A DNA stretch of 64,000 nucleotides, taken from assembly GCF_019670125.1 (NCBI RefSeq), contig NZ_AP023033.1, positions 4,303,501-4,367,500 on the forward strand, in the 5' to 3' direction. This DNA comes from Agarivorans aestuarii. GTDB taxonomy: Bacteria > Pseudomonadota > Gammaproteobacteria > Enterobacterales > Celerinatantimonadaceae. The notes under the pieces were generated by a model. That model had not been told where the DNA came from, did no database searches, and saw nothing but the letters and a program-made list of their open reading frames with translations. Both the position numbers and the translations under genes were made by a program. Of the stretch, positions 4,403-41,662 are shown one piece after another; position 1 is the stretch's first letter; each line of letters opens with the position of its first letter.

Positions 4403-5581
4403 CTATTCTTCTTGCTCTTGTTTACTAATACGGTAAGCCTTAGGCGTTAACTCTAAGTCTTTCTTAAATACCGCATACATGTATTGCAAAGAAGGGTAAC
4501 CACATAGCTCCGCAATGTCGGAGGTGGAAAGCTCGGTATTACGCAACAAACTCATGGCTTGTTCTAACTTGGCACAGTGAATTTCTTGGTGAACCGAGTG
4601 GCCAATATCATCTTTAAAGCGCTTTTCTAGGTTTGAACGCGATACTTTTACATAATCTAATACTTGCTCAACCTTAATGCCTTTACAGGCGTTATGGCGA
4701 ATAAAGTGCATCGCCTGAATAACGTAAGGGTCTTTTAGCGCTTTGTAATCGGTAGATTGGCGCTCAACCACTTGCTCTGGGCCTACCAGCTCACGCACTT
4801 TACGTAACTCTTGCCCTTGCAGTTGGCGGTGCAATAGCTTGGCCGCTTGGAAGCCCATTTTACGACAACCTTGCGCTACCGAACTCAAAGATACTCGGCT
4901 TAAATGGCGAGTTAAGTCTTCATCATCAATACCAATAATTGACACTTTGTCTGGCACGATGATCCCCAAGTGATCACACACTTGCAGCAAGTGGCGCGCT
5001 CGCGCGTCAGATACCGCAACAATGCCTACCGGTTTAGGCATAGATTGAATCCAATCCGCCAGGCGGTTCATTGCATACTGCCAAGACTCTGGGGTGGTCT
5101 CCATGCCGCGATAAACCGCACACTCGTAACCATCACCTGCTACCAATTGTTGGAAAATAGCTTCACGCTCCATCGCCCAGCGGTTGCCCTCATTAGGTGG
5201 CATGCCGTAGTAAGCGAAGTACTCTAAACCCTTGGCTTTTAGGTGCTCGTAGGCTGAATTAACCAAAGCGCGGTTATCGGTGGCCACGTAAGGAAAATCG
5301 GGGTATTGCTCTGGGTTTTCGTAAGAGCTGCCCACAGCCACCACTGGCACACGTAGGCCAGTTAAGGCTTTTTCAATTTCAGGGTCGTCGAAGTCGGCAA
5401 TAATGCCGTCGCCTACCCAATGTTGTAGTTTGCTGATCCGACAGCGAAAATCTTCCTCTAGAAATATATCCCAATCACATTGTGATGCCTGTAAGTAATC
5501 GCCAATACCTTTAATGATCTGACGGTCATAAACCTTATTTGCATTAAATAACAATGTAATTTTGAAACGTTTATCAAACAT
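4403..5581 (-). CDS. xylR: Xylose operon regulator XylR
   Basis: A 392-residue regulator with the E. coli XylR architecture. Residues 1-275 are a LacI/periplasmic-binding-protein-like sugar domain (opening with FKITLLFNANKVYDRQIIKG, then GDGIIADFDD), and residues about 285-390 are an AraC-type DNA-binding domain ending FKKDLELTPKAYR. In the family, xylose binding lets the dimer contact tandem operator half-sites and activate xylose genes. TAGGAG lies at good distance from the ATG at 5581. It is divergent from xylB, and the 284-base gap holds CGTAAT-type motifs and a CRP-like site. Identity is confident; the regulon is inferred. Confidence 0.95.
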   Translation of the reverse strand: MFDKRFKITLLFNANKVYDRQIIKGIGDYLQASQCDWDIFLEEDFRCRISKLQHWVGDGIIADFDDPEIEKALTGLRVPVVAVGSSYENPEQYPDFPYVATDNRALVNSAYEHLKAKGLEYFAYYGMPPNEGNRWAMEREAIFQQLVAGDGYECAVYRGMETTPESWQYAMNRLADWIQSMPKPVGIVAVSDARARHLLQVCDHLGIIVPDKVSIIGIDDEDLTRHLSRVSLSSVAQGCRKMGFQAAKLLHRQLQGQELRKVRELVGPEQVVERQSTDYKALKDPYVIQAMHFIRHNACKGIKVEQVLDYVKVSRSNLEKRFKDDIGHSVHQEIHCAKLEQAMSLLRNTELSTSDIAELCGYPSLQYMYAVFKKDLELTPKAYRISKQEQEE

Positions 5582-5656
5582 GTGGGGCTCCTAAAAGCAC
5601 GGTGCCAATCAAGATTTAATTTAATATCTAAAAAAAAAGAGCCGAACGCTACTGTG

Positions 5657-5668
5657 AAAAATCGTAAT
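5657..5668. promoter_or_regulatory. XylR-site-like motif, copy 1 (xylR-xylB gap)
   Basis: AAAAATCGTAAT resembles AATTTTCGTAAT at 5743-5754 and the reverse complement of ATTACGAAATTT before xylA. The recurrence at xylose promoters suggests XylR recognition; the assignment is inferred from position and similarity. Confidence 0.4.
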
Positions 5669-5686
5669 GTGATTATGATCATGCAC
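5665..5686. promoter_or_regulatory. CRP-like site in xylR-xylB gap
   Basis: The 22-base stretch contains TGTGA, six bases, then TCATG. The left half matches the CRP consensus exactly and the right half is degenerate. Catabolite control would be expected for xylose genes. Confidence 0.35.
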
Positions 5687-5741
5687 ATTTCAAACGAAAC
5701 TGTGAACTCAGGCACGCCATGGAAAAACGCTATTCCTCTGG

Positions 5742-5755
5742 TAATTTTCGTAATT
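5742..5755. promoter_or_regulatory. XylR-site-like motif, copy 2 (xylB promoter)
   Basis: TAATTTTCGTAATT carries two TAATT elements 9 bases apart, a direct-repeat layout typical of AraC-type domains. It lies about 110 bases before xylB, and a related sequence occurs upstream of xylA. Confidence 0.45.
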
Positions 5756-5865
5756 GAGCCAAGTTTCCAATCCGCGGCAGGATGAGCTCATATTTAAAAC
5801 ACTTTTGCTGCCGCTTAATTACAGTGTAGTTTCGCCGAGCAGCTCGCGTCCAATAAGGAACTTCT

Positions 5866-7317
5866 ATGTATATCGGTATTGATTTAGGCACCTCTGGAGT
5901 AAAAGTTGTGCTGCAGGCTGAAAACGGTGACATTTTAAGCCAAGCCACCGAAAGCTTAACAGTATCTCGTCCTGCACCGTTGTGGTCTGAGCAAGCTCCG
6001 CAAGACTGGTGGCAAGCCACTCAAGATGCACTTAGCGCATTAAGCAAACAGCACTCGCTAGCGGAAGTTAAAGCGATTGGCCTAAGTGGCCAAATGCATG
6101 GCGCTACCTTACTGGATGCCCAAGGCGAAATTTTACGCCCAGCCATTTTATGGAACGACGGCCGCAGTGCGGCTCAATGTGAAGAAATCGAGCGCGCAGT
6201 GCCTAATTCTCGCGATATTGTTGGCAATCTGATGATGCCAGGTTTTACCGCGCCTAAACTGCTTTGGGTTAAGCAAAACGAGCCGGAAATTTTTGCCAAG
6301 GTCGACAAAGTACTACTGCCTAAAGATTACTTGCGTTACTTGCTGTCGGGCAACTTTGCCTCTGATATGTCAGATTCAGCCGGCACCATGTGGTTAGACG
6401 TAGCCAAACGCGACTGGAGTGATGAAATTCTAGCGGCCACTGGCCTTAGCCGTGAACACATGCCTGAACTATTTGAAGGCAGCGAAGTTACCGGTAACCT
6501 TAAAGCAGAACTCGCCGAGCGTTGGGGCATGCCCGCCGTGCCATTAGTAGCAGGTGGTGGCGATAACGCAGCTGGCGCTGTAGGTGTAGGCATTACTAAG
6601 CCTGGCCAGGCGATGTTGTCTTTAGGCACTTCAGGTGTTTACTTTGCTGTAAGTGATGGTTACCTAAGCAACCCCGAATCAGCTTTACATAGCTTCTGTC
6701 ACGCTCTGCCTAGTGCTTGGCACCAAATGTCGGTCATCCTTAGCGCCGCATCGTGTTTAGATTGGGTAGTTAACTTAACCGGCCAAGCAGACGTGCCAAG
6801 CATGTTAGCCGCCGTAGAAGCCGCGCCAGAAAGTGATAACCCAGTGTACTTTTTACCTTACTTATCAGGTGAGCGTACTCCGCACAATAACCCAGAAGCC
6901 AAGGGCGTATTCTTTGGCATGACTCATTCAACTGGCCCATTAGATTTATGCCGCGCGGTCTTAGAAGGCGTGGCTTATGCCTTTGCCGACGGCTTAGACG
7001 CACTGCATGCAACGGGCTTAAAACCAGAAGAAATCACCTTAATTGGTGGCGGTGCGCGCAGTCAGTTTTGGCGTCAAATGCTAGCCGACGTATTTGGCCA
7101 AGCAGTAAGTTACCGCTTAGGCGGCGAAGTAGGCCCAGCACTTGGTGCTGCACGTTTAGCCCAACTAGGGGTAACCGAGAATCCAGATCTAGCCGCCATT
7201 TGCCCAGTGCCAGAGTTAGTTGAAGTTCACCAAGTGAATGTCGAGCGCCATGCTGTTTACGCTAAACGCCGCGAAACTTACCAAGCGCTTTACCCAAAAC
7301 TAGCACCACTTTTTTAA
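5866..7317 (+). CDS. xylB: Xylulokinase
   Basis: A 483-residue FGGY-family kinase that phosphorylates D-xylulose to D-xylulose-5-phosphate with ATP in the cytoplasm. Residues 4-10 (GIDLGTS) form the first phosphate-binding loop, GQMHG (75-79) is the xylulokinase substrate motif, and Asp233 in AGGGDNAAGA aligns with the catalytic Asp of E. coli XylB. A second ATPase block, LIGGGARSQFWRQM, lies near residue 390. Length is normal for the family. AAGGAA lies 5 bases before the ATG. It is divergent from xylR and separated from xylA by 6 kb, unlike the E. coli xylAB operon. A strong hairpin follows the stop. Confidence 0.96.
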   Translation: MYIGIDLGTSGVKVVLQAENGDILSQATESLTVSRPAPLWSEQAPQDWWQATQDALSALSKQHSLAEVKAIGLSGQMHGATLLDAQGEILRPAILWNDGRSAAQCEEIERAVPNSRDIVGNLMMPGFTAPKLLWVKQNEPEIFAKVDKVLLPKDYLRYLLSGNFASDMSDSAGTMWLDVAKRDWSDEILAATGLSREHMPELFEGSEVTGNLKAELAERWGMPAVPLVAGGGDNAAGAVGVGITKPGQAMLSLGTSGVYFAVSDGYLSNPESALHSFCHALPSAWHQMSVILSAASCLDWVVNLTGQADVPSMLAAVEAAPESDNPVYFLPYLSGERTPHNNPEAKGVFFGMTHSTGPLDLCRAVLEGVAYAFADGLDALHATGLKPEEITLIGGGARSQFWRQMLADVFGQAVSYRLGGEVGPALGAARLAQLGVTENPDLAAICPVPELVEVHQVNVERHAVYAKRRETYQALYPKLAPLF

Positions 7318-7332
7318 GCAATAAACCCAACG

Positions 7333-7359
7333 AACAGCCATAGCCTTGCTATGGCTGTT
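7333..7359 (+). terminator. 12-bp perfect hairpin after xylB
   Basis: AACAGCCATAGC (7333-7344) and GCTATGGCTGTT (7348-7359) form a perfect 12-base-pair stem with a CTT loop. The next bases are CTGCC, not a T-run. It may be an mRNA-stabilising or partial-termination structure between xylB and the second regulator gene. Confidence 0.55.
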
Positions 7360-7451
7360 CTGCCAGTTAAGTGAACACATCTGATAAATCCGCATTTATC
7401 ACATGTGCTCACCCCGGCCCATTGAACGTAGTAATACGGAAGACAAATACT

Positions 7452-8666
7452 ATGGCAAAGAACTATCGCGTAGCGCTTCTTTTGAACGCTAACATGGCTT
7501 ACGACCGAGGCATCATTACCGGCATATCATCATTTGTGAAAAATGGTGCTCCTTGGAGTTTGTTCATTGGAGAACAAAATCTATTTTCGGTGGACGATTT
7601 TAGTAAGTGGCAGGGTGATGGCGTAATTGCCGACTTCGACCACCCAGAAATTCGCGATGCGATTAAGTCTCGAAATATTCCAGTAGTGGGCATTGCCAGT
7701 AGCGAAACCGTAGCGAATACCATGCAAGATTACCCGGTGGTGATGTCTGACAATAAACAGATCATCAATATGGCGGCACGTTTCTTAAAAATGCGCCGTT
7801 ATACCCATTTAGCATTTTGTGGTTACCCCAACCGCCCCTTTAATGACTGGTCGGCCAACCGCGAGCAGCTGCTGCGCGATTGGTGTGAGCGTAACCAATG
7901 CGCCTATAGCCAGTTTAGTGCTAAAGACAACATTGATACCTGGGACAGTGACTTACAGTGTTTAGTTGATTGGCTCAGCCGCCTACCTAAGCCAGTAGGG
8001 ATCATTGCTGCCAACGATGTGCGCGCTCGCCAACTGAGCTACGCCTGTCAGCAGGCTAAAATAAACATCCCCGAAGAAGTCTCTATCATGGGGATAGACG
8101 ATGACGAACTAAACTGCACCTTAAGTTTGCCTACATTAACTTCGGTTCGCCAAGGTACCCGTGCCATGGGGTACTTAACCGCCTCGCTTCTGCAGCCGCT
8201 AATGGATGGCAAAAACTTAGTTAAACGCCATCACTTTGTGCAACCTGAACGGGTTATTGGCCGAGATTCTACCGACTTTTTCCATTTTAAAGACAACCTA
8301 GTGCGGGGCGCGTTAAGCCTTATTCGAATTAACCAAGGCAATATCAAGGTAAAACAAATTCTGGCCGAACTAGGCTGTTCTCGTGGCGCTATCGATAATA
8401 AATTCCATGAAGAGTTAGGCATGTCTCTGCACGCTTACTTGCTCGACACACAGCTTAATTTGGCGCTAGAGCTATTGGTGGATACCGAGCAAACCTTAAG
8501 TGAGATAGCTAAAGTGGTGGGCTTTAGCAGCCCGCAGTATTTGTCATGCGCAATTAAGAAACGCTGGAACATGACTCCCGGCATGTTGCGCGAACAAAAG
8601 GGTGTAACAAACCGAGAGCTAGCTCCACTTATTGAAGATACCGAAGAGTTAATCGAACAAGCCTAG
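7452..8666 (+). CDS. Second XylR-like (LacI-sensor plus AraC) regulator
   Basis: A 404-residue paralogue of XylR with the same architecture. It has a sugar-binding-protein-like sensor at about residues 1-280 (YRVALLLNANMAYDRGIITG, WQGDGVIADFDHPEI) and an AraC-type DNA-binding domain at about 295-390 (SEIAKVVGFSSPQYLSCAIK). The segment aligned with EEDFR of XylR reads GEQNLFS here, and the recognition-helix regions differ strongly, so ligand and DNA targets may differ. The frame is open from an ATG at 7371, but GGAAG lies about 9 bases before the ATG at 7452, where homology also begins. It lies between xylB and tal. It may serve a related pentose or control tal-tkt; both are inference. Confidence 0.85.
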   Translation: MAKNYRVALLLNANMAYDRGIITGISSFVKNGAPWSLFIGEQNLFSVDDFSKWQGDGVIADFDHPEIRDAIKSRNIPVVGIASSETVANTMQDYPVVMSDNKQIINMAARFLKMRRYTHLAFCGYPNRPFNDWSANREQLLRDWCERNQCAYSQFSAKDNIDTWDSDLQCLVDWLSRLPKPVGIIAANDVRARQLSYACQQAKINIPEEVSIMGIDDDELNCTLSLPTLTSVRQGTRAMGYLTASLLQPLMDGKNLVKRHHFVQPERVIGRDSTDFFHFKDNLVRGALSLIRINQGNIKVKQILAELGCSRGAIDNKFHEELGMSLHAYLLDTQLNLALELLVDTEQTLSEIAKVVGFSSPQYLSCAIKKRWNMTPGMLREQKGVTNRELAPLIEDTEELIEQA

Positions 8667-33435: not shown

Positions 33436-33595
33436 CTTAATGTGAATAAACATTATAGCTGTATGAAAAAGCATCATTGGTGAGTGTATCTTATAAGCCT
33501 AATCTGGTTCACGAGGAATGAGTTTTTGGGATTACCTCTACACCCTACAATTAGCTAAAAAATATAAAACAAGCTATAAAGCAAGGAGCCAAAAC

Positions 33596-34588
33596 ATGAA
33601 AAAACTGACCACTCTATTGTGCGCAGTCGCGTTAGCCGTTTCCGCCCCAGTGTTTGCCAAAACCGTTAAAATTGGTATGGCCATCGATGATCTTCGCTTA
33701 GAGCGCTGGCAAAAAGACCGAGACTTTTTTGTTGAGAAAGCCGAGGAACTTGGTGCCAAAGTATATGTTCAATCGTCCAACAGTAATGAAACCGCCCAGA
33801 TCTCTCAGATTGAGAACATGATTTCTCGTGGCGTAGACGTATTAGTCATTATTCCCTACAACGGCAAAGTATTGTCTAACGTGATTGCGGAAGCTAAATC
33901 CGAAGGTATTCGAGTATTAGCCTACGATCGCTTGATCAACAATGCCGATATCGATTTCTACTTGTCTTTCGACAATGAAAAAGTGGGCGAGCTACAAGCT
34001 CAAGCACTGATTGAGCGTAAAGCCGACGGAAACTTCTTCCTAATGGGCGGCTCACCAGTTGATAACAATGCTAAGTTGTTCCGCCAAGGACAAATGAACG
34101 TGTTGCAGCCACTGATCGACAAAGGTGATATTAAAGTGGTGGGTGACCAATGGGTTGATGGTTGGTTAGCCGAGAATGCCCTAAAAATCATGGAAAATGC
34201 CTTAACTGCTAACGACAACAATATCGATGTGGTAGTTGCCTCGAACGACTCTACTGCAGGTGGTGCGATTCAAGCATTAGACGCACAAGGTCTAGCTGGT
34301 AAGGTGCATATTTCTGGTCAAGACGCCGATTTAGCCGCTAGCCGCCGCGTGGTAGCTGGTACCCAAACCATGACCATTTATAAGCCAATTAAACTGCTCG
34401 CCACTACAGCAGCAGAGCTGGCAGTGCAAATGGGCAACGGCCAAATGCCAGAGTCGAACTCTAGCTTAAACAACGGTACTAAAGACGTACCTTCTTACCT
34501 GCTTACGCCAATTCCGGTAGACAAGTCGAATATCGACCAAACCGTTATTGCCGACGGTTTCCACAGCAAAGACGACGTATACCAATAA
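33596..34588 (+). CDS. xylF: Xylose-binding periplasmic protein XylF
   Basis: A 330-residue periplasmic D-xylose-binding protein. A signal peptide (residues 1-22, cleavage after VFA) precedes VKIGMAIDDLRLERWQKDRD, a segment nearly identical to E. coli XylF. Further matches are VLVIIPYNGKVLSN, FFLMGGSPVDNNAKLFRQGQ and VVGDQWVDGWL. I chose the ATG at 33596 with AAGGAG 7 bases upstream; the frame extends back to 33518 without support. It delivers xylose to XylGH and is followed by an attenuator-like hairpin, which would let it be made in excess. Confidence 0.96.
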   Translation: MKKLTTLLCAVALAVSAPVFAKTVKIGMAIDDLRLERWQKDRDFFVEKAEELGAKVYVQSSNSNETAQISQIENMISRGVDVLVIIPYNGKVLSNVIAEAKSEGIRVLAYDRLINNADIDFYLSFDNEKVGELQAQALIERKADGNFFLMGGSPVDNNAKLFRQGQMNVLQPLIDKGDIKVVGDQWVDGWLAENALKIMENALTANDNNIDVVVASNDSTAGGAIQALDAQGLAGKVHISGQDADLAASRRVVAGTQTMTIYKPIKLLATTAAELAVQMGNGQMPESNSSLNNGTKDVPSYLLTPIPVDKSNIDQTVIADGFHSKDDVYQ

Positions 34589-34616
34589 CAATTAAGCACT
34601 ATTTCACTACGCAGTA

Positions 34617-34648
34617 AAAAAGGGTGGGGCCATCGCCTCGCCCTTTTT
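34617..34648 (+). terminator. Attenuator-like hairpin between xylF and xylG
   Basis: AAAAAGGGTGGGGC (34617-34630), loop CATC and GCCTCGCCCTTTTT (34635-34648) make a 14-pair stem with two G-U pairs ending in a T-run. xylG begins 13 bases later, so it probably causes partial termination that keeps binding protein above ATPase and permease. Confidence 0.75.
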
Positions 34649-34661
34649 ATTAGGAGTTATG

Positions 34662-36185
34662 ATGAGCCAAAGTAGCTTATTAATGATGTCTGACATCGTT
34701 AAAAAATTCTCCGGAGTGATTGCGCTTAATGGGGTTAATTTCAATTTAGAACGTGGCGAAGTTGTCTCGCTTTGTGGCGAGAACGGCTCTGGGAAATCCA
34801 CCTTAATGAAGGTGTTAACCGGTGTTCACCCCCATGGTAGTTACGAAGGACAGATCATTTATAAAGGCGAGCCGCTTGCTTCGCGCAATATTCGCGATAG
34901 CGAAGCGAAAGGCATTGCTATCATTCACCAAGAGCTCACCCTGGTTAAAGAGCTATCGATCCTAGAAAACATTTTTCTCGGCGCAGAAATCACCAGCTAT
35001 GGGGTACTTGATCACAGCGCCATGTTTAAGCAAACCGAGAATTTGCTTAAACGGGTTAAGTTGGATGTATCACCAGACACGGCTATTCGTGAACTGGGGG
35101 TTGGCCAACAGCAACTGGTCGAAATTGCCAAAGCTCTATCCAAAAAGGCCGAAGTATTGGTTCTTGATGAGCCAAGTGCACCACTCACCGAGTCTGAAAC
35201 ACGAGTATTGCTAGATATTGTTAAACAGCTACGCAGCGAAGGCGTAAGTTGTGTATACATCTCCCACAAACTCACCGAAGTGAAGGAAATCTCTGATCGC
35301 ATTTGCATTATTCGCGATGGTGAGCACATTGGAACTCAAGATGCTAAACACATGTCCACCGACGACATTATTAGCATGATGGTAGGTCGCGAGCTTAAAC
35401 AGCTATTTCCCCGTGAAGAGCACCCTATTGGCGACGCGATCCTCAAAGTTGGGCCGGTTAACGCCCAATTGAGCAAATCGTCCAATCTTAAACAAGTAGA
35501 CCAAGTAAGTTTTAGTCTGCGTAAGGGTGAGATTTTGGGCGTAGCTGGCTTGGTGGGTTCGGGCCGTACCGAACTTATGCAGTGTTTATTTGGTTCTTAC
35601 GAAGGCATTTACCAATGCCCTGTGGAACTAGATGGAAAACCGATAAAAATTCGCCACAATCGCGATGCTTTGAATCACGGCATTGCCATGGTGCCTGAAG
35701 ATCGTAAACGCCATGGCATTGTGCCAATTATGGGAGTGGGTCAAAACATTACCCTAGCCGGTTTAAACATGTTTAGTGGCTTAGGCCAAACCGTCAATGA
35801 ATCTGCTGAACAAGCAGCCATAGAACAATCCATTCAACGCCTTAAGGTAAAAACAGCATCCCCAGAGTTGGCCATAAAAAGCCTCAGCGGAGGCAACCAA
35901 CAAAAAGCTATTTTAGCCAAATTTTTATTATTGCAGCCGCGTATTTTGATCCTTGATGAACCCACAAGAGGCATCGATGTAGGGGCAAAATATGAAATTT
36001 ATAAGTTGATGTATCAATTGGTTAAACAAGGGATCAGCATCATTATGGTGTCCTCCGAATTGCCGGAAGTATTAGGCATTAGTGACCGAGTATTAGTGAT
36101 GCATGAAGGTAAATTGAAAGGCCTTCTAGACAATCAAGACCTGAGCCAAGAAATGGTGATGGACTGCGCGTTGGCCGAGGAGTAA
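34662..36185 (+). CDS. xylG: Xylose ABC transporter ATP-binding protein XylG
   Basis: A 507-residue double ATPase of the sugar ABC (CUT2) type. The N-terminal domain has the Walker A motif [15 protein letters not shown] near residue 40 and Walker [11 protein letters not shown]. The C-terminal domain has the degenerate loop [19 protein letters not shown] and [12 protein letters not shown]. Two ATGs lie together; the second (34662) has AGGAG at 5 bases. The first half closely follows E. coli XylG. It lies 4 bases upstream of xylH and powers xylose uptake with XylF and XylH. Confidence 0.95.
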
Positions 36186-36189
36186 CAAG

Positions 36190-37368
36190 ATGTCGAGTCA
36201 AGAAACAACAATCAATAGCACCACAAACAAGGTGAGCTTGATGAGCAATTTGAAGAAAATGAAGTTGCAAGTATTGGTGATGTTTGCAGCCATTGCGGTA
36301 ATTATGCTGTTTTTCTACTTCGCCACGGAAGGGAGCTACTTAACCCCACGAAATATTTCCAACTTGCTGCGCCAAACGGCCATTACTGGGATACTCGCCA
36401 TTGGTATGGTGTTTGTGATCATCTCGGCAGAGATTGATTTATCGGTTGGCTCAATGATGGGTTTATTGGGCGGTGCAGCGGCCATTATGGATGTGTGGTG
36501 GCAACTACCGTTACCGCTAACCATTGTTCTAACCCTGTGCGCGGGCTTTTTATTGGGCCTATGGAATGGCTGGTGGGTAGCCTATCGCAAGGTTCCTTCA
36601 TTCATTGTCACCCTGGCTGGTTTACTGGCTTTTCGCGGCATACTCATAGGAATCACTGGCGGCAGCACTGTTGCCCCCACTACCCCTGACATGGGAATTA
36701 TCGGTCAAAGTTATTTGCCAGACATGTTCTCATTGATCACCACGGTTGGCGCACTGGCGGTGTTTTTTGCTTGGCAAGGCAAACTGCGTAAAACGCGCAC
36801 CGAGCACAAATTAAGTAATAACCCCGTCACTGGCGATATATTCAAGTTTGGCCTGATTGCCATCTTCGCCCTAGGCACGGTATTACTATTAAACGACTAC
36901 CGCGGTGTTCCCACTCCCGTATTGTTGCTGGTTGTGCTGATGTTTGCCGCTGCCTTTATGGCCAAGAAAACCGCCTTTGGTCGCCGCATTTACGCCATTG
37001 GTGGCAATCTTGAAGCCAGCCGTTTATCTGGTATCAACGTTGAGCGCACCAAGCTATCAGTATTTGCTATTAATGGCTTATTGGTGGGCGTGGCGGGCTT
37101 AATTTTGGCTTCACGTTTAGGCGCGGGTTCGCCATCTGCTGGTAACATCGCCGAGTTAGACGCCATTGCGGCATGTGTGATTGGCGGCACCAGTTTAGCC
37201 GGTGGGGTGGGCACAGTATTTGGCGCAGTGATGGGCGCATTTATTATGGCCAGTTTAGATAACGGCATGAGCATGATGGATGTACCAACATATTGGCAAT
37301 CCATCATCAAAGGTAGCATCTTGCTATTGGCGGTTTGGATGGATGTAGCCAGTAAGAAACGCGCTTAA
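36190..37368 (+). CDS. xylH: Xylose ABC transporter permease XylH
   Basis: A 392-residue integral membrane permease of the ribose/xylose (BPD_transp_2) family with about ten hydrophobic segments. [34 protein letters not shown] and the C-terminal [20 protein letters not shown] are family signatures. The N-terminus carries about 15 polar residues before a second in-frame ATG; the start could be slightly later. It is last in xylFGH. A G-U-containing hairpin (37389-37424) follows 20 bases after the stop. Confidence 0.95.
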
Positions 37369-37474: not shown

Positions 37475-37936
37475 ATGAGCACAGAACCACTTCACGGCGA
37501 CTATCAGCTGTACCTACTCGACAACTTGCTAATAGCCAGCGCTCAAGGCGCGTGGAATCAAGCTATCAGTGAACACTTTGCTGAAGACTTCAAACGTATT
37601 GGGCAATCACTATCAGCACCTTGGGCACATTTAGTATTGTTAGAACAATGGGAATTAGCAGTACCGGAAGCAGAGCTGGCAATCAGTGAACTGCAGCAAT
37701 GGTGTATTCAAATGGGGATGAGCCACGTGGCGCAAGTATTTAGCTTTTCACCACTCAAACAATACCAACTTCAACGTATGTTGCCGGCTGAGCAACACTA
37801 TAACAAACAGGTTTTTCTTGAAGTCACTAACGCAACGCAATGGTTAAACCAGCAAGGTTTTAGTGCTGCCAAGCTGCTGTTCTTAGAAAGTGACAAACCA
37901 AGTATGATTCAGCGCCACTTTGATAAGGTGGCTTAG
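37475..37936 (+). CDS. Unknown 153-residue cytoplasmic protein
   Basis: I do not recognise this protein. It has no signal peptide or membrane segment, and it alternates short hydrophobic strands (YQLYLLDNLLIASAQGAW, WAHLVLLEQWEL) with amphipathic helices (AELAISELQQWCIQMGM). The pattern is loosely like STAS/SpoIIAA-type small alpha/beta domains, but no signature confirms it. It lies after xylH with a hairpin between, and its 3' end overlaps the convergent diguanylate cyclase gene by 4 bases. It is probably a real gene, given its length and amino-acid composition. Function unknown. Confidence 0.55.
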   Translation: MSTEPLHGDYQLYLLDNLLIASAQGAWNQAISEHFAEDFKRIGQSLSAPWAHLVLLEQWELAVPEAELAISELQQWCIQMGMSHVAQVFSFSPLKQYQLQRMLPAEQHYNKQVFLEVTNATQWLNQQGFSAAKLLFLESDKPSMIQRHFDKVA

Positions 37937-39663
37937 CCGATTGCCGAGGGTATATCTAAAGCATAATAACTAAATTGGTTACGCCCCTTAGACTTAGCTT
38001 GATACATCGCTGCATCGGCATTACGTATCAACAGTTCTGGATCGCTACCATCCGCTGGATACATGCTAATACCTACGCTGGCGTAAACCGGCTGGATATG
38101 CACCCCTAAGCTCACTTCTTGAGCTAAACGACGCAGCACCGTATTCACCACCTCGTTGGCTTCTTCGGGCTCTGATATTGATTCCAATGCCAGCATGAAC
38201 TCATCACCAGCAAACCGAGCCACCGAATCGCCAGAGCGGATAGAATCGCGCAATACTGTTGCAACCTGCTTTAATAAGAGGTCACCGGCTTCATGGCCTA
38301 AATTATCATTAACCGTCTTAAAGTTATCTAAATCGATAAACACTACGGCTAGGCTATTTTGTTCGGTTTGAGCACGGTGAACCGAACCGCGTAGCTGCTC
38401 CAAAAACAAACTGCGGTTAGGCAAACCGGTTAAACTATCGTGGCTGGCCATATGGCGAAGGTTAATCTCATTGTCTTTAAGCTCAACAATTTGCTTATTG
38501 ATTTGCCGCGACATGGCTTTAAAGGTATTGGCTAATAAGCCAATTTCATCTTTACGCTCGATAGGCAAGAGCTGGGCAGCGGGCAGCTTACCCTTAGAAA
38601 AAGAGTTTACTGCAGTCACCATATTCCGAATAGGCTGAGACAGAACCTTGGCAAACATCAGCGAAGTAAGTAGCCCAACTAAGCTCAGCGCTAAACAAAC
38701 CTTAATCATCGAACCCGCTAAAGAGTCCATAATATGGCTTAAGCTAGGCAGTGGGCTTGATAGACCCAACATTGCCATTTTAGGGCTAGATTTTGGCCCA
38801 TAAAACAAAGGGGTGAAAGACACGGCTCGCTCATATTTGTAAACCGCGGAGGAGTCTAGCACAAAGGTTCTTGGCTGCAGATCATTAAACAGCACTTCCA
38901 TCTGAGGGAAGTCACGCTGCATTAAATAGCGATGGCCAAAATGAAAACCAAACTGCTTATCGGGATTAGGATTAACTAAGTAGTCACCTTTTTGATTAGC
39001 TAAATAGATAGCTACGCCTTCGGGCAAATCGGCCTGCATTTGGCTAAACAGCCTTTCTAAACCCACATTCACAACCACCAAGCCCAGCGCTTTGCCATTG
39101 GAAAATACCGGTGAAGCAATCTTTAAAGTAGGCTGGTGTTGCCCAAGTTCAACCCCTTTTTCATTGTGAATATCCACATCGGATAAGTAGCTCTCGCCTG
39201 CATCTAAACGCAAGGTGCGAAATACATAGGGATAGTGGGCTTTTTCTTCTAGACTCGCGGCGGGAATAGCAATTAAACCATCACTTAACCTATCTACGCG
39301 AATTAGCTCGCGGCCAAAGTTTTCCGCGCCAATAAAGCGAACCTGAAAATAAGAAGGATTTAAACTCAGTTTTTGCTTAAAAATATCTTTTAACTGCTCG
39401 GAAAGTACCAGCTTATTGTCAGCCTCAAAGTAGCCCGCTGTTTGCGGAATAGAGCTTAAAAACAATACATCTTTGGTTATTTCATCAATGCTACTACTGA
39501 ACTCTCGGGTAAGGATTTGGGTGGTTGTGGCTAATTCTCGCTCGGCACTTTCTGCTAACAAACCTCGGCTTTCATGGTAACTAACTGCAGCGGTAACTAC
39601 TGAAGCTAAAATTCCAAAGCCGGCAAACCAAAGACCAAAACGAAGAGAAATGGAGTTGATCAT
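37933..39663 (-). CDS. Membrane diguanylate cyclase with periplasmic Cache-like sensor
   Basis: A 576-residue protein that should make cyclic di-GMP from GTP. One transmembrane helix (about residues 8-28) precedes a periplasmic Cache-like domain (about 30-290). A second helix follows (about 305-325), then HAMP (about 325-380) and GGDEF (about 405-570). The active-site loop reads RFAGDEF, with Ala for the first Gly, a substitution found in working enzymes. DSLTGLPNRSLFLEQL is the start of the domain, and no EAL domain is present. Its ATG overlaps the stop of the PotD-like gene (ATGA), so the two are co-translated. The binding protein may present a ligand to its periplasmic domain. Confidence 0.88.
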   Translation of the reverse strand: MINSISLRFGLWFAGFGILASVVTAAVSYHESRGLLAESAERELATTTQILTREFSSSIDEITKDVLFLSSIPQTAGYFEADNKLVLSEQLKDIFKQKLSLNPSYFQVRFIGAENFGRELIRVDRLSDGLIAIPAASLEEKAHYPYVFRTLRLDAGESYLSDVDIHNEKGVELGQHQPTLKIASPVFSNGKALGLVVVNVGLERLFSQMQADLPEGVAIYLANQKGDYLVNPNPDKQFGFHFGHRYLMQRDFPQMEVLFNDLQPRTFVLDSSAVYKYERAVSFTPLFYGPKSSPKMAMLGLSSPLPSLSHIMDSLAGSMIKVCLALSLVGLLTSLMFAKVLSQPIRNMVTAVNSFSKGKLPAAQLLPIERKDEIGLLANTFKAMSRQINKQIVELKDNEINLRHMASHDSLTGLPNRSLFLEQLRGSVHRAQTEQNSLAVVFIDLDNFKTVNDNLGHEAGDLLLKQVATVLRDSIRSGDSVARFAGDEFMLALESISEPEEANEVVNTVLRRLAQEVSLGVHIQPVYASVGISMYPADGSDPELLIRNADAAMYQAKSKGRNQFSYYALDIPSAIG

Positions 39664-40700
39664 GGCAGGCTCATCATCTGCAAGGTTTTGCCGCTAAGAA
39701 TATTTTCCCAAAACTCACTGCGGCGTTGATGGTCTTCCACTTCTTCGAGCCAAATGATCTTGTCTTCAGGTAGCGAGCGAGTGTCTTGCACAATGGTATT
39801 AGCTAAGCCTTGGCGCTCGGTTAACAACTGGCTAACCCAAGGCTCTAAGGTGAAATCAATCCACTTATGGGCTAAGTCTTGGTTTTTCACCCCACTAGAC
39901 ATTGCCCAGCAATCTAACCAAGCCAAGGCACCTTCTTGCGGAATAACATATCCAATGTCTGCGCCTGCATCTTGCAACTGTTTGAGCTGCTGAGCGCCAT
40001 AGTTAGCAAATACTAAAGCTACCGACTCTTGATTATAAAATTCTGAGGCTTCTTCGGGAGAGCTATAAAAGGTTAATACATTGCGCCTTAAGGCCAATAG
40101 CTGCTCTGTGCTGAGCTTAAACTCTTGGTCAGTTTGCTGAAAAGGATTATCTACACCTTGCACCATGCCAGCTAAGGAATAGTTATGGGCACTGCCATTG
40201 TATGCCAGAACCTTTCCTTGATACTGAGGATCCCACAATACTTGCCAGCTAGTGGGCGGCTGTTCAAAATAATTTTTATTGTAGATTAAGCCCATTTCAG
40301 AATAGGTATAAGGAATAGCATATACCTGCTCATCCCGGGTAACGCCGGGGATATCCTGTAAGGATCTAAACCGAGGCAACTGTTTGGCCATATTGCCAAT
40401 GGTTTGCGGCTCAAGAGGTGTAGCAAGCTCGGCATCAATATAGCGCTGTAACTCAGCTGTATTAACCGCAAAAACATCGTAGTTTTCGCCTTGTTTATGG
40501 CCCATTCTCAGCCACATTTCATCATCGCTAGTAATGTAGCTAACTTTAACCTTAACCTTATAGCGCTGTTCAAAGGCCGCGACCATATCGGCGTCGGCGT
40601 AACCCGGCCAAGCCAATACCCGTAAGTCTACTTGCTCGGCAGCCTTGGCGCTGTTGAGCCAAGTAAAAGCCAATAAAATGATAGATAGTAGTCGCAACAT
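39660..40700 (-). CDS. PotD-like periplasmic polyamine-type binding protein
   Basis: A 346-residue secreted protein with a signal peptide (residues 1-20, cleavage after AKA) and a PotD/PotF-like binding fold. VDLRVLAWPGYADADMVAAF, the early SDDEMWLRM segment, YAIPYTYSEMGLIYNK and AIPYTY-type aromatic residues fit extracellular binding proteins for polyamines. No polyamine permease or ATPase is nearby; instead the stop overlaps a diguanylate cyclase. This recalls NspS-MbaA of Vibrio cholerae, where a PotD-like protein controls a membrane c-di-GMP enzyme. GGGAACAGGGA precedes the ATG. The ligand is inferred, not shown. Confidence 0.8.
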   Translation of the reverse strand: MLRLLSIILLAFTWLNSAKAAEQVDLRVLAWPGYADADMVAAFEQRYKVKVKVSYITSDDEMWLRMGHKQGENYDVFAVNTAELQRYIDAELATPLEPQTIGNMAKQLPRFRSLQDIPGVTRDEQVYAIPYTYSEMGLIYNKNYFEQPPTSWQVLWDPQYQGKVLAYNGSAHNYSLAGMVQGVDNPFQQTDQEFKLSTEQLLALRRNVLTFYSSPEEASEFYNQESVALVFANYGAQQLKQLQDAGADIGYVIPQEGALAWLDCWAMSSGVKNQDLAHKWIDFTLEPWVSQLLTERQGLANTIVQDTRSLPEDKIIWLEEVEDHQRRSEFWENILSGKTLQMMSLP

Positions 40701-40852: not shown

Positions 40853-41662
40853 TTATTCTTTCGCTTCGAGGACTCGACCCAATAATTCAAAGTATTGCAA
40901 AGTACAATCACCAATCTCCACTAGATGCTGAGCATCAGGGTAGCCGCCCTGTTTAGCCAGAACAGTTTGCTTGGTGCCACTCACTAAATAATTATTTTTG
41001 ATGTCTTCTCGGCTTTGGATCCAAGCTTCAAACGCCCGCGCCATCATCTCGGTAGGCAGGCTATAATAACGCTGCCCTAGTTGTTTATCTAAAGCTACAG
41101 AGCGTGCCACATAAGAGTGTAAATCTTTACCCTGTTGGCTTAAAAAAACCGCTGCAAACAACTGGTCAAGTCGCCGGTTTAAAGGATGGGTATATTGTTT
41201 GTCATCCGCCAACCAACGCGTAGAGGCAAACTCACGAGGCTGAGGAGGGCTAGAAAACAACTTTGCCGCCATATAATGGTCAAAAGCATGCCACCACTCA
41301 TGAGCTAGCGCGCCAGCACCGGCATTTTTGGCTAGTGCCAAGGTTTGACTGCCGGGTGCATAGTGGGCTTGCACATTGGCCTGGCCACCAGTGCCAAAGG
41401 CCAAGCTTAACGAACCTCTCAAACCTATGGCCAGCGGCGGTAAGTTAAGCAAGAATGCAAGGTCTGCCAAGGCATCAAAGATTAGCTCTGCGGCGCGTTG
41501 TTTCTCTTGTTTATTAACCCAAGCGCCAATAGCTAAACCAGCAAAACCAAAGGTATGCTTAATATCGGCAAAATCGACACTATCACCATGGCGATAGTCG
41601 GGACCACGCCGATAATACTGGCGATTAAGCCCTACTCCCGCTGTTTTATTCTCACCGCTCAA
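40853..41662 (-). CDS. HExxH metalloprotein, CLCA_X/LPD1-like
   Basis: A 269-residue protein with the zinc-protease motif HEWWHAFDHY (His121, Glu122, His125, and a third His129), preceded by NAGAGALA. The shape fits the LPD1/CLCA_X group of predicted metallopeptidases, also found as a domain in polyvalent proteins of mobile elements. RQYYRRGPDYRHGDSV at the N-terminus and YSLPTEMMARAFEAWIQSRE near residue 215 are the other distinctive blocks, with Glu and Arg that could complete the site. No signal peptide is seen. The start is a TTG at 41662 with AGGAG 12 bases upstream, so it could begin slightly later. Substrate unknown. Confidence 0.7.
   Translation of the reverse strand: MSGENKTAGVGLNRQYYRRGPDYRHGDSVDFADIKHTFGFAGLAIGAWVNKQEKQRAAELIFDALADLAFLLNLPPLAIGLRGSLSLAFGTGGQANVQAHYAPGSQTLALAKNAGAGALAHEWWHAFDHYMAAKLFSSPPQPREFASTRWLADDKQYTHPLNRRLDQLFAAVFLSQQGKDLHSYVARSVALDKQLGQRYYSLPTEMMARAFEAWIQSREDIKNNYLVSGTKQTVLAKQGGYPDAQHLVEIGDCTLQYFELLGRVLEAKE

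What the first reader, a model, noticed from the sequence alone, without database searches (positions are those of the whole stretch)
37933..40700. PotD-like binding protein translationally coupled to a Cache-GGDEF cyclase
The two genes share an ATGA overlap, so the proteins should be made together. The binding protein has no transporter partner. The pairing recalls NspS-MbaA of Vibrio cholerae, in which a PotD-like protein controls a membrane c-di-GMP enzyme, but here the enzyme has a Cache-like sensor and a GGDEF domain without EAL. A polyamine-linked c-di-GMP input in another architecture is plausible.
Basis: partly seen in the sequence, partly recalled or inferred. Interest (0 to 1): 0.7.

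Follow-up and report, generated by a model that had tools for sequence, protein, structure and literature searches.

The report
Binding protein coupled to c-di-GMP enzyme
A marine bacterium makes a ligand-binding protein together with a membrane enzyme that produces the signal c-di-GMP; the pair is kept together across many distant bacteria, resembles the cholera bacterium's polyamine sensor in logic, but seems to have arisen separately and probably senses something other than polyamines.

Summary
In an Agarivorans genome a PotD-superfamily solute-binding protein (SBP, 346 aa) overlaps by ATGA a dCache-HAMP-GGDEF cyclase (576 aa), without a transporter of its own beside it. The pair is a conserved module: 76 of 80 fetched beta/gammaproteobacterial relatives (of 241 found) have the Cache partner just downstream, usually with GGDEF alone, in 18 of 80 with GGDEF-EAL. 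Among 148 genomes of the order, all 11 with a close SBP have the Cache partner beside it. SBP divergence tracks the Cache domain (partial rho 0.66) far better than GGDEF (0.13-0.15).

The polyamine reading is not supported. Three of the four acidic residues that hold spermidine in PotD are gone; E171 is His and W229 Asn in 93 of 93 rows. NspS-type proteins group with PotD/PotF, this family does not. MbaA-type periplasmic domains show no detectable relation to this Cache domain, and the same genome carries a separate NspS-MbaA-like pair.

Verdict: probably a third, independently assembled lineage of SBP-controlled c-di-GMP receptor, ligand unknown. It should work like NspS-MbaA but is not a member. 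Binding, complex formation and activity are untested; structure prediction did not run.

The parts
39660..40700 (-). Periplasmic solute-binding protein (346 aa, SBP_bac_8, PotD superfamily); the N terminus looks like a signal peptide (by eye)
37933..39663 (-). Membrane diguanylate cyclase: dCache-HAMP-GGDEF (576 aa)
   Evidence: hydrophobic stretches near residues 5-29 and 311-342
39660..39663 (-). ATGA overlap of SBP stop and cyclase start (translational coupling inferred)
   Evidence: 4-nt overlap in 54 of 87 pairs
38902..39510 (-). Periplasmic dCache-type sensor (PF21623 match, residues 52-254)
38497..38655 (-). HAMP relay domain (residues 337-389)
37975..38448 (-). GGDEF domain (residues 406-563)
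38197..38211 (-). AGDEF active-site motif (residues 485-489)
38227..38238 (-). RSGD product-inhibition (I-site) motif, residues 476-479
   Evidence: RxxD-x5-xG[DE]EF in 84 of 87 partners
40185..40187 (-). SBP His172, at the alignment position of PotD Glu171
   Evidence: His in 93 of 93 rows
40002..40004 (-). SBP Asn233, at the alignment position of PotD Trp229
   Evidence: Asn in 93 of 93 rows

Best explanation
The two genes encode one receptor. The SBP is secreted to the periplasm, binds a small ligand that is probably not a linear polyamine, and docks on the dCache domain of the partner. Docking (or its loss) is relayed through HAMP to the AGDEF cyclase and changes c-di-GMP synthesis; an I-site limits output. 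Translational coupling keeps the two proteins in step. Shown by sequence: overlap, domain content, linkage across the family, co-occurrence, SBP-Cache co-divergence, loss of most polyamine contacts, and separate grouping from NspS. Inferred: docking on the Cache domain, direction of control, cyclase activity, ligand class.
For: Linkage in 6 of 6 congeners examined, in another genus of the family (4-nt overlap kept at 45% SBP identity), and in two other families of the order with a GAF-GGDEF-EAL partner. 76 of 80 fetched relatives (of 241) have the Cache partner. In 148 genomes of the order, window genome included, 11 have the SBP at E <= 2.8e-95. Ten of them have a close Cache homologue (E <= 2.1e-52) and the eleventh, G105, a divergent one (3.8e-19), each next to the SBP. 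The best Cache hit in any other genome is 3.6e-28. SBP distances follow Cache distances given GGDEF (partial rho 0.66) but hardly GGDEF distances given Cache (0.13; 0.15 in a 46-row set under 75% identity with Cache columns subsampled). A PotB/PotC-like permease lies in the fetched DNA of 2 of 80 loci, a PotA-like ATPase in 6 of 80. No neighbour family occurs in more than 9 of 83 loci. Pocket. Tree.
Against: There are no binding, interaction or c-di-GMP data. Neighbouring SBP and sensor genes are not always linked in function: the abstract of PMC11113362 reports no binding between AgtS and AgtB or PA0602, nor between AruS and PA4985. Three of 80 loci have the SBP without a Cache neighbour (L126, L127, L131); in a fourth, L088, the contig ends. 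One of 80 (L067) has both an ABC permease and an ATPase ORF upstream on the same strand. Operon inheritance by itself raises SBP-Cache correlation; the contrast with GGDEF could also come from exchange of output domains. The pocket reading rests on alignment at about 23-29% identity, without a model (structure jobs failed). The family is rare: 1 of 369 class genomes, the window's own, at E <= 1e-60. In the tree some long branches meet.
Confidence: 0.74

Rival explanations
1. It is a polyamine sensor like NspS-MbaA: the SBP binds putrescine, spermidine or norspermidine and controls the cyclase.
For: The SBP belongs to the PotD superfamily; its PDB matches include PotD/PotF-type proteins. W31, Y34, W261 and D263 of the polyamine pocket are kept. 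Gene order and overlap resemble nspS-mbaA (PMC9993111, section 17).
Against: The PotD E36 position is Gly in 93 of 93, D168 is Gly/Thr/Ala/Ser in 88 and Asp in 3, E171 is His in 93 of 93, W229 is Asn in 93 of 93; the PotF D247 position is Ser/Thr/Arg/Ala in 84 and Asp in 3. NspS-type proteins lie with PotD/PotF. Eight ABC-linked relatives from the plasmid collection show no annotated polyamine-metabolism gene nearby, although one has a tyramine oxidase and one a second operon annotated PotD/PotF family. The genome already has an NspS-MbaA-like pair.
Confidence: 0.12
2. The Cache domain binds its own ligand directly, and the SBP only buffers or presents another compound, or assists folding.
For: dCache domains commonly bind small ligands themselves (general knowledge; the abstract start of PMC7584622 describes AI-2 binding to dCache). 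Weakly related Cache sensors occur without the SBP (one in the window genome).
Against: Close Cache homologues occur only in genomes with the SBP among 148; SBP-Cache co-divergence.
Confidence: 0.1
3. The SBP serves a transporter encoded elsewhere and its place beside the cyclase is incidental.
For: Its relatives include ABC binding proteins; some SBPs are encoded apart from their permeases (general knowledge). L067 has ABC genes upstream.
Against: 76 of 80 loci keep the pairing and 2 of 80 have a PotB/PotC-like permease in the fetched DNA.
Confidence: 0.04

Closest known systems
NspS-MbaA (Vibrio cholerae, Sinorhizobium meliloti)
   Same: PotD-superfamily SBP gene directly upstream of a membrane c-di-GMP enzyme gene, usually overlapping; in NspS-MbaA the SBP gates the enzyme (PMC9993111, passages and section 17).
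   Different: NspS-type proteins group with PotD/PotF, this family does not. MbaA-type periplasmic regions gave hhalign probability 3.9% against this Cache domain and no Cache match. MbaA has EAL and lacks the I-site; here there is no EAL and an I-site. Pocket residues differ.
Vibrio parahaemolyticus scr system (ScrB-ScrC, names recalled)
   Same: Cited with NspS-MbaA as an SBP-activated c-di-GMP enzyme (PMC9602780 and PMC11113362, passages).
   Different: Sequences not fetched; details of its SBP and sensor are recalled, not tested.
LuxP-LuxQ (recalled)
   Same: An SBP docks on a tandem PAS/Cache-like periplasmic domain.
   Different: Output is a histidine kinase and the SBP is of another family; not tested here.
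PotD / PotF polyamine-binding proteins
   Same: Same superfamily by sequence.
   Different: They work with ABC transporters; most polyamine-coordinating acids present there are lost here.

Membership tests
NspS-MbaA | SBP gene directly upstream of, and coupled to, a membrane c-di-GMP enzyme gene | tested here: met
NspS-MbaA | SBP in the NspS clade | tested here: not met
   24 family rows form one clade (100/98); 4 NspS-type rows form one clade (100/99) that joins PotD/PotF (100/99). The tool warned that long branches meet. BLASTP 24% to NspS-type and 24% to PotD.
NspS-MbaA | Predicted norspermidine contacts W41, D70, D90, F131, Y233, D236, W261, D263 of V. cholerae NspS | tested here: not met
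   Window keeps W41, D70, W261, D263. Lost: D90->N80 (Asn 93/93), F131->T132 (Thr 90/93), Y233->N233 (Asn 93/93), D236->A236 (Ser/Thr/Arg/Ala 84/93) (list from PMC9993111)
NspS-MbaA | MbaA-type periplasmic domain | tested here: not met
   hhalign probability 3.9%, E 0.011, between 16 Cache N-termini and 4 MbaA-type N-termini; shallow profiles
NspS-MbaA | GGDEF plus EAL output | tested here: not met
   Window partner has GGDEF only; 18 of 80 relatives have EAL too
NspS-MbaA | Response to polyamines in vivo | not testable with these tools
   needs experiment
PotD/PotF polyamine-binding proteins | Acidic residues that bind the amino groups (PotD E36, D168, E171, D257) | tested here: not met
   Only the D257 equivalent is kept (Asp 92/93) (list from PMC11414716, passages)
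PotD/PotF polyamine-binding proteins | Aromatic contacts (PotD W34, Y37, W229, W255) | tested here: inconclusive
   Trp 93/93, Tyr 93/93 and Trp 91/93 kept; the W229 position is Asn 93/93
SBP-activated transmembrane receptors (general class) | SBP encoded with, and acting on, a receptor sensor domain | tested here: inconclusive
   Linkage and co-divergence met; physical interaction not tested
GGDEF diguanylate cyclase | GGDEF domain with active-site motif | tested here: met
   PF00990 E 3.6e-49; AGDEF motif. PMC9993111 states that motifs with another residue for the first Gly are functional. Enzyme activity not tested
ScrB-ScrC | ScrB-type SBP and ScrC-type sensor domain | not tested
   sequences not fetched

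The most novel reading that the evidence does not exclude
The SBP-dCache pair is a separate receptor module, perhaps moving horizontally, that evolved independently of NspS-MbaA, detects a non-polyamine ligand (perhaps amino acid-like or hydroxylated, held by W31/Y34/W261/D263 and the invariant N80/H172/N233), and has been wired both to cyclase-only and to cyclase-phosphodiesterase outputs across beta- and gammaproteobacteria, so that a genome such as this Agarivorans runs two unrelated SBP-gated c-di-GMP inputs side by side.
Probability: 0.6. Interest if true: 0.62.

Novelty: new variant of a known kind. Interest (0 to 1): 0.5.

Why it matters
Two papers read in passages cite two SBP-activated c-di-GMP enzyme systems. 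A third of separate ancestry would show that recruiting a binding protein to gate c-di-GMP is a repeated evolutionary route. It also warns that a 'PotD-like' label next to a GGDEF gene should not be read as polyamine sensing. The family offers a conserved, testable pair whose ligand can be screened directly, in organisms from methylotrophs to marine and soil bacteria.

Tried and rejected
Polyamine ligand: rejected as most likely on pocket grounds, kept as a rival.

NspS orthology: rejected by the tree and by the separate NspS-MbaA-like pair in the same genome.

Ligand from gene neighbourhood: clustering of neighbours in 83 loci (top 18 clusters printed) gave no family in more than 9 of 83; the larger clusters were mostly same-genus synteny or ORFs that look antisense, judged by eye. 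Neighbourhoods of 8 ABC-linked relatives in the plasmid collection point to varied sugar-, lactone-, polyol- or acetoin-type catabolism, not one substrate. Only two of the eight SBPs (L140, L141) are in the tree; the other six were picked by similarity to L140, and that gene table is incomplete.

Burkholderia members (L138, L139): the records carry no annotation there, so I could not tie them to a studied B. cenocepacia gene (passages of PMC5835511 and PMC6335245).

Promoter scan: one 10-of-12 match upstream of the SBP (40793-40766), but fewer matches in all (4) than in shuffles (mean 6.2), so no evidence.

Lipobox idea: 9 of 92 family SBPs show a lipobox-like pattern, several doubtful; the window SBP was not in that scan.

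Literature: searches (no hits) listed no title or abstract start that describes this pair; most subscription papers are not held.
Full report
What is there. On the minus strand of the window a 346-aa solute-binding protein gene (39660-40700) overlaps a 576-aa gene (37933-39663) by the four bases ATGA. The first matches SBP_bac_8 and, far below their equivalog cut-offs, the YdcS, PotF and PotD models. The second matches PF21623, HAMP and GGDEF, with dCache_1 below its cut-off and no EAL; its motif is AGDEF with an RSGD site five residues before it. The genome is taken to be an Agarivorans: the same-genus genome G005 has a contig of the same length (139162) and the same 79% SBP match as a named Agarivorans sp. 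Toyoura001 contig. The genome has 54 GGDEF matches in all. The ABC genes at 33518-37368 lie on the other strand and have their own binding protein.

The pair is a module. Six of six congeners examined have it in the same neighbourhood. G007, of the same family but another genus, has it with 45% SBP identity and the same 4-nt overlap. G016 and G023, of other families, have it with a Cache-GAF-GGDEF-EAL partner. A pattern-based scan of a collection of 84,980 species genomes found 241 encoding stretches, and the best 80 were kept. They include Rhodoferax, Methylomonas, Thiobacillus, Pseudomonas, Thauera, Hahella and Neptunomonas. Of these 80, 76 have a Cache protein downstream on the same strand (up to 1.5 kb allowed): 55 with GGDEF, 18 with GGDEF and EAL, one with GGDEF cut by the contig end, one cut before an output domain, and one without an output domain in the same ORF. 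Four have none, one of them because the contig ends. Of 87 pairs, 54 have the 4-nt overlap and 84 have the I-site pattern. The motif is GGDEF in 65, AGDEF in 11, SGDEF in 6, HGDEF in 1, GGEEF in 1, not found in 3. These 87 include at least two duplicate loci (L042=L058, L098=L156) and close relatives. No neighbour family occurs in more than 9 of 83 loci. A PotB/PotC-like permease lies in the fetched DNA of 2 of 80 loci and a PotA-like ATPase in 6; one of them, L067, has both upstream of the SBP on the same strand. Some loci are only a few kilobases long.

Control. Of 19 PotD/PotF-like loci outside the family, one has a GGDEF gene just after the SBP and 14 have a permease. This was a convenience sample, and five NspS-MbaA-type loci, which do have a GGDEF-EAL gene, were left out.

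Co-occurrence and co-divergence. In 148 genomes drawn from the order (window genome included), 11 have the SBP at E <= 2.8e-95. Searching with the Cache region gave close matches (E <= 2.1e-52) in 10 of those 11 and a divergent one (3.8e-19) in the eleventh, G105; in each the Cache gene lies next to the SBP. The best hit in any other genome is 3.6e-28. SBP distances correlate with Cache distances (rho 0.77) and less with GGDEF distances (0.52); the partial values are 0.66 and 0.13 in 86 rows. In a 46-row set under 75% identity, with Cache columns subsampled to the GGDEF length, they are 0.66 and 0.15. Shared inheritance of an operon alone would not favour one domain of the partner; SBP-Cache contact would, but exchange of output domains could add to it. 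The family is rare and patchy: 1 of 369 genomes drawn evenly from the class, the window's own, at E <= 1e-60.

The pocket does not look like a polyamine pocket. Spermidine in PotD is held by E36, D168, E171 and D257 and by W34, Y37, W229 and W255 (PMC11414716, passages). In PotF the proximal amine is held by S38, D39 and D247, and D247, D278, E185 and D39 are at least 96% conserved (PMC8666671, passages). Across 93 family rows the E36 position is Gly in 93, E171 is His in 93, W229 is Asn in 93, S83 is Asn in 93, Y85 is Ala in 93, and D168 is Gly/Thr/Ala/Ser in 88 and Asp in 3. Kept are W34 (93), Y37 (93), W255 (91) and D257 (92). Of eight norspermidine contacts predicted in NspS (PMC9993111), the window keeps four and loses four. 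The constancy of the replaced residues argues for a specific, different ligand rather than decay. PotD, PotF and NspS-type rows, including those of the window genome, carry Asp or Glu at the His172 position; an ABC-linked SBP of another family (L166) also has His there, and one unassigned ABC-linked SBP of the window genome (L177) has Pro. All this rests on sequence alignment at about 23-29% identity; no structure model was obtained.

Ancestry. In a 39-row tree the 24 family rows form one clade (100/98). They lie with two alphaproteobacterial ABC binding proteins and one long-branched SBP; that set is parted from NspS plus PotD/PotF by a branch with 100/99, while the nearer join of the family with the two alphaproteobacterial rows is weak (84/52). 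The four NspS-type proteins form one clade (100/99) next to PotD/PotF. The program warned about long branches. Eight ABC-linked relatives from the plasmid collection have mostly sugar-, lactone-, polyol- or acetoin-type enzymes nearby; one also has a tyramine oxidase, one a choline dehydrogenase, and one a second operon annotated PotD/PotF family. MbaA-type periplasmic regions gave hhalign probability 3.9% against this Cache domain and no Cache match in Pfam. The window's genome also has an NspS-like SBP (33% to L157, 23% to the window SBP) seven bases before a GGDEF-EAL protein, near 4,127,400 of the chromosome. So two SBP-c-di-GMP pairs, apparently of separate origin, coexist.

Mechanism. 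The best-supported model is that the SBP binds a periplasmic ligand and docks on the Cache domain, and the signal passes through HAMP to the cyclase. Two papers cite NspS-MbaA and the Vibrio parahaemolyticus swarming system as SBP-activated c-di-GMP enzymes (PMC9602780 and PMC11113362, passages). LuxP-LuxQ, recalled, is the closest structural analogy. Caution comes from PMC11113362 (abstract): neighbouring SBPs and kinases of P. aeruginosa did not interact in those assays. The direction of control and the ligand remain open.

Standing. No listing showed a description of this pair. I rate it a new variant of a known kind.

Noticed in passing
G000:C1 about 4127402-4130813 (L179:4403-5428 and 5436-7814): A separate NspS-like SBP followed 7 nt later by a 792-aa GGDEF-EAL protein (AGDEF, EVL motifs): an NspS-MbaA-like pair in the same genome.
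   Followed up: yes
L055:4020-7193 (G031): Two tandem PotD-like SBP genes after ABC genes, followed 84 nt later by a 262-aa GGDEF protein; possibly another SBP-cyclase pairing.
   Followed up: no
L045:7362-10445 and L048:222-3317: Same SBP-Cache module with GAF-GGDEF-EAL instead of GGDEF alone.
   Followed up: partly
G000:C1 4242959-4244923 (L197:2960-4924): A second Cache-GGDEF protein (about 654 aa) with a distantly related Cache domain; no PotD-type SBP found in the 8 kb around it.
   Followed up: partly
window 40853-41662: CLCA_X family / LPD1 protein upstream of the pair, syntenic in the genus; function unknown.
   Followed up: no
L126, L127, L131: Family SBP without the Cache partner beside it; in L131 the converging neighbour begins with a PAS-like sequence (named by eye).
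   Followed up: partly
window 33518-37368: Peripla_BP_4 binding protein, ABC ATPase and permease genes (xylFGH-like by order, name recalled) beside the pair in the genus.
   Followed up: no
L067:2183-4520: PotB/PotC-like permease and PotA-like ATPase ORFs upstream of a family SBP in one Rhodoferax MAG, the one locus of 80 with both.
   Followed up: no
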